A stretch of 61,410 bases of DNA from Rhodanobacter lindaniclasticus. Its GTDB lineage: Bacteria; Pseudomonadota; Gammaproteobacteria; Xanthomonadales; Rhodanobacteraceae. This document shows positions 27,480-30,446 of this stretch, piece by piece. The notes below the pieces were generated by a model. The model was not told the DNA's origin. It did no database searches and was given only the letters and a program-made list of their open reading frames with translations. The position numbers and the translations under genes were made by a program. How positions within the stretch are numbered: position 1 is the stretch's first letter; every line of letters begins with the position of its first letter. The stretch is from the NCBI RefSeq assembly GCF_004799035.1, contig NZ_MWIO01000035.1, forward strand, positions 1 through 61,410. Direction: 5' to 3'.

Positions 27480-30446
27480 ATGACCCACGATTACAAGAGC
27501 ACCATCAACCTGCCGCATACGGAATTTCCGATGCGCGGCGATCTGCCGAAACGCGAGCCGGGCTGGCTGGCGCAGTGGGAGCAGGTGGGCCGCTATGCGC
27601 AGATCCAGCGGAAGACCGCCCAGCGCGACCGCACGTTCGTGCTGCACGACGGTCCACCGTACGCGAACGGTGCGATCCACATCGGGCATGCGGTCAACAA
27701 GATCCTCAAGGACATGGTGGTCAAGTCCAAGTTGCTGGCCGGCTACCGGGCGCCGTACGTGCCGGGCTGGGATTGCCACGGCCTGCCGATCGAGATCGCG
27801 GTGGAGAAGAAGTTCGGCAAGCCGGGCGACAAGCTCGATGCCGCCGCGTTCCGGCAGAAGTGCCGCGAGTATGCGGCCGAGCAGGTCGACACGCAGCGTG
27901 CCGGCTTCAAGCGGCTGGGTGTGCTCGGCGACTGGGAGCACCCGTATCGCACCATGGATTTCAAGTACGAGGCCGACATGCTGCGCGCGCTGGCGCGCAT
28001 CGTCGCCAACGGCCACGTGCTGCGCGGCGCCAAGCCGGTGTACTGGTGCTTCGATTGCGCCTCCGCGCTGGCCGAGGCGGAGATCGAGTACGGCGACAAG
28101 GTCTCGCCGGCGGTCGACGTGGCCTACGACGCGGTCGATGCGAACGCCCTGGCGGCGAAGTTCGGCGTCGACGCCGGCGACGCCGTCGTCGCCATCCCGA
28201 TCTGGACCACCACGCCGTGGACGCTGCCGGAAAGCCAGGCGGTGTCGCTGGGCGCGGATCTCGAATATGCGTTGATCGAAGGGCCGGCGCGCGATGGCCG
28301 CCGCGTGCTGCTGGTGGTTGCCAGTGCGCTGGTCGAGCAGGTGGCCGCCCGCTATTCCCTTCTCCCCTTGGGAGAAGGTGCCCGAAGGGCGGATGAGGGT
28401 ACGGGCGGAGCGGAACATCCCGGCGCAGCCGAACCCTCACCCCCAGCCCCTCTCCCAGTGGGAGAGGGGAGCAAAAGCGTGCTCGGCCATGCCGAGGGCA
28501 AGGCGCTGGAAGGCATCAAGCTGCGCCACCCGTTCTACCCGCGCGAAGTGCCGGTGATCCTCGGCGACCACGTCAGTGCCGAGGACGGTACCGGTGCCGT
28601 GCACACCTCGCCCGACCACGGCGTGGAGGATTTCGTGGTGGCGCGCGAGTACGGCATCGGCCTGCTCAACTATGTCGGTTCGCGCGGCGCGTATCACGCC
28701 GACACGCCGGCCGCCGACGGCGTCGAGCTGGCCAACATGCACGTCTGGAAGGCCAACGACGCCATCGTCGACGTGCTGCGCCAGCGCGGCGTGCTGCTGG
28801 CCTTCGCCAGGATCGAGCACAGCTACCCGAACTGCTGGCGGCACAAGACGCCGGTGATCTACCGCACCACGCCGCAGTGGTTCATCTCGATGGAACAGGC
28901 GGACCTGCGCAAGACTGCGCTGGCCTCGATCAAGGACGTGCGCTGGGTGCCGGGCTGGGGCGAGGAACGCATCGCCGGCATGGTGGCCGGCCGCCCGGAC
29001 TGGTGCATTTCGCGCCAGCGCACCTGGGGTGTGCCGATCGCGCTGTTCGTGCACAAGGTCACGCAGGAGCCGCACCCCGATTCCGTCGCGCTGCTCGAAC
29101 AGGTAGCGAAGATCGTGGAGCAGGGTGGCATCGACGCGTGGTTCGCGCTCGATCCCGCCACGCTGCTGGGCGACCAGGCGGGCGACTACGAGAAGGTCAC
29201 CGACGTGCTCGACGTCTGGTTCGATTCCGGCGTCACCCACTTCGCGGTGATCGGCCAGCGGCCCGAGCTGCAGCGCGGCGACGCGAAGCAATACAAGGTG
29301 ATGTACCTGGAAGGCTCCGACCAGCATCGCGGCTGGTTCCAGTCGTCCTTGCTCACTTCCTCGGCGATCCACGGCCGCGCGCCGTACGACGAGGTGCTCA
29401 CCCACGGTTTCACGGTGGACGCCAACGGCCGCAAGATGTCCAAGTCGCTGGGCAACGTTGTGGCGCCGCAGAAGGTGATGGACACGCTGGGCGCCGACGT
29501 GCTGCGCCTGTGGGTGGCCTCGGCCGACTATCGCAATGAGATGTCGGTTTCCGACGAGATCCTCAAGCGCGTTTCCGACAGCTACCGGCGCATCCGCAAC
29601 ACCGCGCGCTTCCTGCTCGGCAACCTCGACGGCTTCGATCCGGCGCAGCATCTGCTGCAGGTGGGAGACAGCCTGCTGCTCGACCAGTGGGCGGTGCAGC
29701 AGGCGTTCGACGTGCAGCAGGCAGTGGTGGCCGCCTACGAGCGCTACGACTTTCCCGAAGTGGTGGCGCGCATCCAGAACTTCTGCACCAACGAACTGGG
29801 CGCGTTGTACCTGGACATCACCAAGGACCGCCTCTACACCATGCCGACCGACAGCCGCGGCCGGCGCAGTGCGCAGAGCGCGATGTATCGCATCGCCGAG
29901 GCACTGGTGCGCTGGCTGGCGCCGATCCTGGGCTTCACCGCCGAGGAAATCTGGCAGCAGTTGCCCGGCGAGCGCGGCGAGAGCGTGCTGTTCGAGACCT
30001 GGTACGACGGCCTGACGGCCACCCAGGGGACGCCCGAGCAGCGCCGCTGGTGGAGCGACCTGCTGGCGATCCGCGATGGCGCCTCGCGCGTGCTCGAAGG
30101 CATGCGCAAGGCCGAGCAGATCGGCGCGGCGCTGGAGGCGAAGCTGGTCGTGGATGCTGACGCGGAACTTGCCGCGCGCTACGCCGCGGTGGCCGACGAG
30201 CTGCGCTTCTTCTTCATCACCTCGGACTTCGCGCTGGCGCCCTTGGCACCACGGACGGACGAGGCGATGAAGGTGGAACTGGACGGTGCCGAGGCGCGGG
30301 TTTCCGCCAGCGTCAGCGACGCGGCCAAATGCGTGCGCTGCTGGCACCGCCGCGAGGACGTCGGCAGCCATGCCGAGCATCCGGAACTGTGCGGCCGCTG
30401 CGTCGGCAATGTCGAAGGGCCGGGCGAGGATCGCCGCTGGTTCTGA
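27480..30446 (+). CDS. ileS: Isoleucyl-tRNA synthetase with an in-frame repeat insertion
   Basis: A 988-residue class I synthetase that charges tRNA-Ile. HIGH motif His67-His70 in NGAIHIGHAV; editing (CP1) domain with TTPWTLPESQAVSLG and GTGAVHTSPDHGVED (the editing Asp is kept); KMSKS at 652-656; C-terminal zinc finger CVRCW...CGRC. At about residues 293-331, between VEQVAARY and VLGHAEGKALEG, there is a low-complexity block (SLLPLGEGARRADEG... APLPVGEGS). It is encoded exactly by a type C palindromic repeat that also occurs between genes at 18694. E. coli IleRS has no counterpart there. The frame stays open, so the enzyme is probably functional with an extra surface loop. Confidence 0.95.
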   Translation: MTHDYKSTINLPHTEFPMRGDLPKREPGWLAQWEQVGRYAQIQRKTAQRDRTFVLHDGPPYANGAIHIGHAVNKILKDMVVKSKLLAGYRAPYVPGWDCHGLPIEIAVEKKFGKPGDKLDAAAFRQKCREYAAEQVDTQRAGFKRLGVLGDWEHPYRTMDFKYEADMLRALARIVANGHVLRGAKPVYWCFDCASALAEAEIEYGDKVSPAVDVAYDAVDANALAAKFGVDAGDAVVAIPIWTTTPWTLPESQAVSLGADLEYALIEGPARDGRRVLLVVASALVEQVAARYSLLPLGEGARRADEGTGGAEHPGAAEPSPPAPLPVGEGSKSVLGHAEGKALEGIKLRHPFYPREVPVILGDHVSAEDGTGAVHTSPDHGVEDFVVAREYGIGLLNYVGSRGAYHADTPAADGVELANMHVWKANDAIVDVLRQRGVLLAFARIEHSYPNCWRHKTPVIYRTTPQWFISMEQADLRKTALASIKDVRWVPGWGEERIAGMVAGRPDWCISRQRTWGVPIALFVHKVTQEPHPDSVALLEQVAKIVEQGGIDAWFALDPATLLGDQAGDYEKVTDVLDVWFDSGVTHFAVIGQRPELQRGDAKQYKVMYLEGSDQHRGWFQSSLLTSSAIHGRAPYDEVLTHGFTVDANGRKMSKSLGNVVAPQKVMDTLGADVLRLWVASADYRNEMSVSDEILKRVSDSYRRIRNTARFLLGNLDGFDPAQHLLQVGDSLLLDQWAVQQAFDVQQAVVAAYERYDFPEVVARIQNFCTNELGALYLDITKDRLYTMPTDSRGRRSAQSAMYRIAEALVRWLAPILGFTAEEIWQQLPGERGESVLFETWYDGLTATQGTPEQRRWWSDLLAIRDGASRVLEGMRKAEQIGAALEAKLVVDADAELAARYAAVADELRFFFITSDFALAPLAPRTDEAMKVELDGAEARVSASVSDAAKCVRCWHRREDVGSHAEHPELCGRCVGNVEGPGEDRRWF
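28357..28471. repeat. Composite palindromic repeat (REP type C) inside ileS
   Basis: Same structure and orientation as 18694-18810. The left hairpin CTTCTCCCCTTGGGAGAAG and the flank GTGCCCGAAGGGCGGATGAG are identical. The middle is diverged. The right hairpin is CCTCTCCCAGTGGGAGAGG. It lies wholly within the coding sequence and has no stop codon in the ileS frame. Confidence 0.92.

What the first reader, a model, noticed from the sequence alone, without database searches (positions are those of the whole stretch)
28357..28471. Palindromic interspersed repeat inserted in frame inside ileS
Seen directly: a roughly 115-base unit inside ileS has the same hairpins, internal flank, length and orientation as the intergenic unit at 18694-18810. 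It is read through without a stop and adds about 39 residues of Leu/Pro/Gly/Glu-rich sequence to the editing (CP1) domain. REP/MITE-like units normally avoid genes, and tolerance inside an essential synthetase is unusual. The extra loop could be neutral, could affect editing, or the RNA hairpins could slow translation at this point.
Basis: partly seen in the sequence, partly recalled or inferred. Interest (0 to 1): 0.75.

Follow-up and report, generated by a model that had tools for sequence, protein, structure and literature searches.

The report
Mobile palindrome read inside IleRS gene
A roughly 115-base interspersed palindromic repeat sits in frame inside an essential tRNA-charging gene of a Rhodanobacter-type bacterium, and related species differ again and again in which repeat, if any, fills the same protein loop, which points to a reusable, tolerated insertion site.

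Summary
A ~115-nt two-hairpin unit (28355-28469) lies inside ileS, is read through, and resembles the copy at 18692-18806. It contributes 41 codons (28356-28478) but replaces 6, so the net gain over the closest relative is 35 residues. The loop joins a helix to a strand in the CP1 editing domain; AlphaFold2 leaves 295-331 disordered and the neighbours ordered.

It is not an isolated oddity. Repeat-derived inserts occupy this ileS site in 18 of 130 family loci read. Nearest sisters often lack them: 8 changes among 38 genus members, one clade rejected. Of 91 near-full copies from 7 genomes, 21 were called in-frame intragenic, in 8 conserved genes, often at the same site in different species.

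Best reading: a REP/MITE-like selfish palindrome tolerated in permissive loops, whose alleles turn over between species, probably partly by short-tract recombination. It works like Rickettsia palindromic elements and published intragenic REPs, but I found no GTAG/CGTC tag, no target-site duplication, no RAYT beside it and no single reading frame. No effect on editing or translation was tested.

The parts
27480..30446 (+). ileS, isoleucine--tRNA ligase, 988 aa
   Evidence: TIGR00392 873 bits over its cut-off of 621; ORF
28356..28478 (+). repeat-derived coding segment, residues 293-333 (123 nt), where the relative L062 has 18 nt
   Evidence: codon comparison with L062 and other loci
28355..28469 (+). 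palindromic repeat unit (core), followed by an AGC tail at 28470-28472
28358..28378 (+). left hairpin CCTTCTCCC/GGGAGAAGG
   Evidence: sequence read directly
28394..28400 (+). inner arm TGAGGGT, complementary to 28433-28439
   Evidence: sequence read directly
28433..28439 (+). inner arm ACCCTCA
   Evidence: sequence read directly
28447..28469 (+). right hairpin CCCCTCTCCC/GGGAGAGGGG
   Evidence: sequence read directly
18692..18806 (+). second copy of the unit in the window, not classed as intragenic
   Evidence: 85% identity over 115 nt, row L003

Best explanation
A non-autonomous, selfish palindromic repeat (REP/MITE-like by behaviour) lies in frame in a surface loop of the IleRS editing domain. 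It survives because the loop is permissive and the unit has few stop codons, so the enzyme carries a disordered Pro/Gly/Glu-rich loop and probably works normally. This loop, and particular loops of several other large conserved proteins, act as reusable sites: repeat alleles are gained, exchanged and lost between related species. Shown: in-frame insert, same-site recurrence, discordance with the gene tree, purifying selection on the gene. Inferred: neutrality, exchange by short-tract homologous recombination, and the original insertion mechanism (unknown; no transposase linked).
For: Repeat copies elsewhere in the genome and a match to the intergenic unit in 41 of 45 genus genomes. Repeat-derived site-1 inserts in 18 of 130 ileS loci read, from 130 of the 181 genomes searched. 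Trees: 17 insert rows of 124 need 15 changes, 10 forced by starred branches, no more clustered than shuffled labels (mean 16.1; 102 of 500 as low); quick IQ-TREE of DNA, 9 of 38 genus rows need 8 changes, 7 forced, the 9 as one clade rejected, p-AU 1e-43. Different junctions and subfamilies at the site suggest at least three insertions. Another ileS insert is the best-scoring match for 6 of 8 long inserts, among 7 ileS and 87 other units, which points to shared descent despite the discordant gene tree. The 10 codons upstream are 67-90% identical in 9 insert/no-insert sister pairs and 77-100% in 11 no-insert pairs (one-sided p 0.002 on 7 versus 11), as short-tract exchange would give. dN/dS 0.13 against L062. 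Insert pLDDT under 50, flanks ordered. Copies are open in about 4.0 of 6 frames; the ileS unit in 4, its shuffles in 2.8.
Against: For L027 itself a copy outside ileS from another genus scores equal to its best ileS match (86.5 v 86.4), and two own-genome copies are 91-92% identical against 89%, with more gaps, so fresh insertion is possible here. For L061 and L036 no own-genome copies were in the comparison. The upstream drop could reflect relaxed constraint. Downstream of L027 the patch is uneven (96% then 75%). The insert-bearing sisters L030 and L059 carry different inserts (67% upstream), and L031/L032 show no drop (90%). No within-species polymorphism was examined.
Confidence: 0.7

Rival explanations
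1. Repeated independent transposition of the repeat into the same ileS loop, i.e. the loop DNA is a preferred target, without interspecies recombination.
For: Several junction/subfamily types at the site; hrpB, valS, metH, polA and lhr sites also recur across species; L027 has close copies in its own genome.
Against: Long inserts tend to match other ileS inserts best (6 of 8); flanks tend to diverge with the insert; no target-site duplication (2 of 91 copies with 5 nt or more, shuffled mean 1.0).
Confidence: 0.3
2. One ancient insertion in each gene, inherited vertically, with many later losses.
For: Same TA/TTCCC-type junction in several Rhodanobacter, g22 and g8 loci, and a shared AGC-like tail.
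Against: Simple loss would not restore the replaced codons seen in insert-free sisters; one clade rejected in the genus; other junction types exist.
Confidence: 0.15
3. The insert is adaptive: the loop tunes editing, or the mRNA hairpin slows translation to aid folding.
For: Strong hairpin; kept in an essential gene; a leuS copy lies near profile position 358 of 843, in the editing region as I recall it.
Against: Presence is scattered among close relatives; short and long forms occur at the same site, and the short forms fold about as strongly per base (-0.43 to -0.61) as ordinary coding windows (-0.35 to -0.50); both orientations and five of six frames are used across genes.
Confidence: 0.12

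Closest known systems
Rickettsia palindromic elements (RPE; Ogata et al. 2000, 2002, not read; known here through the review PMC10969869, section 13 and passages)
   Same: Palindromic repeats of about 150 nt inserted in frame in unrelated genes, with relatives in several species.
   Different: Different bacterial class (recalled); here both orientations and five of six frames are used, so no single conserved peptide; 70 of 91 copies examined here were not called intragenic, whereas the review puts nearly half of RPEs in genes.
Intragenic GTAG/CGTC REPs (Di Nocera et al. 2013, PMC3733652: section 15 read whole, passages elsewhere including the abstract)
   Same: Palindromes inside ORFs for helicases, DNA repair proteins and tRNA synthetases; REPs at about the same recB site in two Xanthomonas species.
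   Different: Here the unit is ~115 nt without a GTAG or CGTC tag and not beside the one Y1 transposase found. Its additional file 3, which lists the genes, was not read.
Enterobacterial RU repeats found in genes (Delihas 2007, PMC2759123, abstract and outline seen) and Coxiella QMITEs (PMC5896051, passages seen)
   Same: Short MITE-like repeats read as protein inside genes.
   Different: What I saw does not describe recurrence at one site of an essential enzyme across genera.

Membership tests
REP (GTAG/CGTC) | conserved GTAG or CGTC tag at one end | tested here: not met
   GTAG/CTAC within 8 nt outside either end in 3 of 91 copies, CGTC/GACG in 6 of 91
REP with RAYT | RAYT gene flanked by the repeat | tested here: not met
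   one Y1_Tnp match in the 109-contig assembly; its 3.3-kb locus L157 has no unit copy (best 13 nt, E 0.5)
REP (20-40 nt) | short single palindrome | tested here: not met
   core 115 nt, two hairpins plus inner arms; single-hairpin short forms do exist in relatives
MITE | terminal inverted repeats | tested here: met
   the ends of the unit pair over a long stem
MITE | target-site duplication | tested here: not met
   2 of 91 with 5 nt or more against 0.99 shuffled
MITE | parent autonomous element | not tested
   only PF01797 was searched
RPE | in-frame insertion in unrelated genes | tested here: met
   21 of 91 copies, 8 genes
RPE | conserved peptide in one frame | tested here: not met
   21 intragenic copies use five of six frames
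RPE | sequence homology to Rickettsia RPE families | not tested
   RPE sequences were not fetched
known structured RNA (Rfam) | match above gathering score | tested here: not met
   15 matches at E<=1, best 22.4 bits against a gathering score of 94

The most novel reading that the evidence does not exclude
Certain protein loops (ileS, hrpB, lhr, valS, metH, polA and others) are coding safe harbours: palindrome-bearing alleles move among species by a homing-like route, in which the palindrome itself provokes breakage and short-tract gene conversion, so a non-autonomous repeat spreads through essential genes without a transposase.
Probability: 0.12. Interest if true: 0.85.

Novelty: new variant of a known kind. 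Interest (0 to 1): 0.6.

Why it matters
Interspersed palindromes are usually treated as extragenic. Here the conserved proteins of one family show repeat occupancy of particular loops that differs between sister species. That gives natural with/without pairs of an essential enzyme, in which the effect of a disordered insert and of a very stable mRNA hairpin can be measured directly, and a system for asking how non-autonomous repeats persist inside genes.

Tried and rejected
Isolated insertion or assembly error: rejected, other species share the site. RAYT-mobilised REP: the single Y1_Tnp locus holds no unit copy. Known RNA family: nothing near gathering. An AGC tail as a mark of coding copies: 8 of 21 intragenic versus 6 of 70 others (p 0.003), but four of the 8 are ileS and three are hrpB, so they are not independent; unexplained. 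Literature: the sequence-word search (15 of 207 listed) gave unrelated papers; the listings (complete) and (20 of 717; 25 of 33) show no title or abstract start that describes this ileS insert; PMC12306157 was checked by passages only and has nothing on in-frame repeats. PDB mapping gave sequence placement only: the insert falls between residues 274 and 285 of 8c9e; no fold search was run.

Limits: 130 of 181 genomes' ileS were fetched; L074, L078 and L153 were read separately; L033, L113 and L122 were left out of the first tree; residue spacing was measured by pattern in 108 of the 127 loci with both motifs, exactly 22 in 67 of them, the rest read by eye. In one search my pattern misread L211. 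The codon model was trained partly on ileS and other insert-bearing genes; the 21 calls were then checked by NCBIfam, or for three ileS copies by position. Several of those NCBIfam hits lie under the whole-protein cut-off because the loci are gene fragments. Sister pairs were picked by me from the tree; the test dropped 2 of 9 insert pairs (L058-L073 because L058 was used already, L031-L084 because L084 was). The copies were the near-full, best-matching ones that I chose from a cut-off list, so 21 of 91 is not a census.

Full report
Observation. The window holds ileS at 27480-30446. Inside it, at 28355-28469, is a unit of two hairpins and inner complementary arms that matches the copy at 18692-18806 (85% over 115 nt; 98% over the first 51). 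The genome has 26 matches at E<=0.001, some places being hit on both strands. Both copies fold far below shuffled sequence. The coding segment is 28356-28478 (41 codons), and the closest relative, G153 (L062), has 6 codons there, a net gain of 35 residues.

Where it lies. The segment follows a helix ending in ARY and precedes the strand VLGH in the CP1 editing domain (domain name recalled). By sequence it falls between residues 274 and 285 of the solved IleRS 8c9e. AlphaFold2 on 40 sequences gives mean pLDDT 84.7; residues 295-331 are under 50, while helix 282-293 and strand 334-339 are ordered. The motifs TTTPWTLP and GTGAVH (recalled as editing motifs) are intact in the sequence. dN/dS against L062 is 0.13 over 916 codons, so the one high-scoring ileS of the genome is under purifying selection.

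Who has it. ileS was fetched from 130 loci of the family, one per genome, of 181 genomes searched (partial ones). The usual spacing between RY and HP is 22 residues (67 of 108 measured). Repeat-derived inserts at this site occur in 18 of 130: nine long forms (L027, L028, L029, L031, L036, L057, L058, L061, L074) and nine that are short or of another subfamily (L030, L032, L041, L043, L047, L059, L060, L068, L151), in five genus groups. A second loop about 20 residues on is filled in L033, L043 and L129; remnants are suspected in L034, L035 and L038. In the named collection, of 80 loci fetched, R. spathiphylli B39, R. fulvus Jip2 and MAG FW106_bin.6 carry short forms; in the Stenotrophomonas, Luteimonas and burkholderial loci printed I saw no such repeat.

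Turnover. On a FastTree of 124 IleRS proteins with the spacer removed, 17 insert-bearing rows need 15 changes (10 forced by starred branches; shuffled mean 16.1, 102 of 500 shuffles as low). On a quick IQ-TREE of DNA with the spacer and its near flanks removed, 9 insert rows of 38 genus members need 8 changes (7 forced), and holding them as one clade is rejected (p-AU 1e-43). Junctions and hairpin subfamilies differ: TA/TTCCC-like in many; two codons later in L030; three codons later in L041, L043 and L151. This suggests at least three insertions. Yet the long inserts resemble each other: the best-scoring match is another ileS insert for 6 of 8, against 87 other units (for L027 a tie with a copy of another genus; for L036 no; own-genome copies were lacking for L061 and L036). 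And in insert/no-insert sister pairs the 10 codons upstream are unusually diverged (67-90% in 9 pairs, versus 77-100% in 11 no-insert pairs; one-sided p 0.002 on 7 versus 11). Together this suggests allele exchange over short tracts on top of several insertions. It does not prove it: relaxed constraint is possible, and fresh insertion remains possible for L027, whose own genome holds copies 91-92% identical.

Not only ileS. In this genome in-frame repeat-derived segments also lie in hrpB, an Lhr-like helicase (two sites), mpl, argE and uvrD. Compared with four or five relatives per gene (hrpB of G161 and argE of G166 were not retrieved), the segments sit at the same places with differences of form and presence: argE lacks it in G153 and G161, mpl in G166, and hrpB of G166 keeps only a short stretch. 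From seven genomes I examined 91 distinct near-full units; 21 were called in-frame intragenic. All 21 fall in identified genes: hrpB 6, ileS 4, lhr-like 3, valS 2, metH 2, polA 2, leuS 1, and a lipoyl-domain dihydrolipoyl dehydrogenase 1 (three of the ileS copies by position). Read by eye, hrpB, valS, metH, polA and each lhr site have the insert at the same place in the species that have it. Copies are rarer in genes than the coding share of a bacterial genome (about 88%, recalled) would give, but not absent.

How it works. The unit needs no coding design: copies are open in about 4.0 of 6 frames, intragenic or not, and intragenic copies use five of six frames in both orientations. A selfish palindrome that lands in a permissive loop with a net length change divisible by three can simply be tolerated. 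No effect on editing or translation was testable here; the short forms do not fold more strongly per base than ordinary coding windows by much. The mobiliser is unknown: no target-site duplication, no GTAG/CGTC tag, and the one Y1 transposase locus holds no unit copy.

What is known. In-frame palindromic repeats are known from Rickettsia (RPE, via PMC10969869), from intragenic REPs in many genomes, including tRNA synthetases and same-site recB inserts in Xanthomonas (PMC3733652, section 15), and from enterobacterial RU elements (PMC2759123, abstract). This is therefore a variant of a known kind. What appears new, within the literature searches made, is the repeated turnover at one loop of an essential enzyme across a family.

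Noticed in passing
31096-31167: GTAG-type REP dimer (GTAGGAGCGCACCCTGTGCGCGATGC arms, 97% complementary) downstream of ileS, a different repeat family; a related arm lies at 4111-4140.
   Followed up: no
30460-30553: Inverted repeat of 34-nt arms (CGTTCGCCCTGAGCG...) shortly after the ileS stop, perhaps a terminator or another interspersed repeat.
   Followed up: no
53503-60781: Two tandem stretches about 3.9 kb apart, 70-78% identical in blocks, look like a duplicated large gene.
   Followed up: no
L057, L239, L250 (ileS, mpl, argE of relatives): A smaller nested module coding for REGTPxGSP-like peptide sits in frame inside the hairpins of intragenic repeats.
   Followed up: partly
L293 and L322 (hrpB of G082 and G054): The hrpB loop is read in the other orientation or filled by a differently reading repeat (LSLRERVAEGRERVRAE...) at the same site as the Rhodanobacter insert.
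   Followed up: partly
L129 (G130 ileS): The second ileS loop holds a much longer insert, 95 residues between RY and HP against the usual 22, with unidentified sequence after a repeat-like start.
   Followed up: no
28470-28472 and other copies: Right-end tail AGC is more common in intragenic copies (8 of 21) than others (6 of 70); cause unknown.
   Followed up: partly
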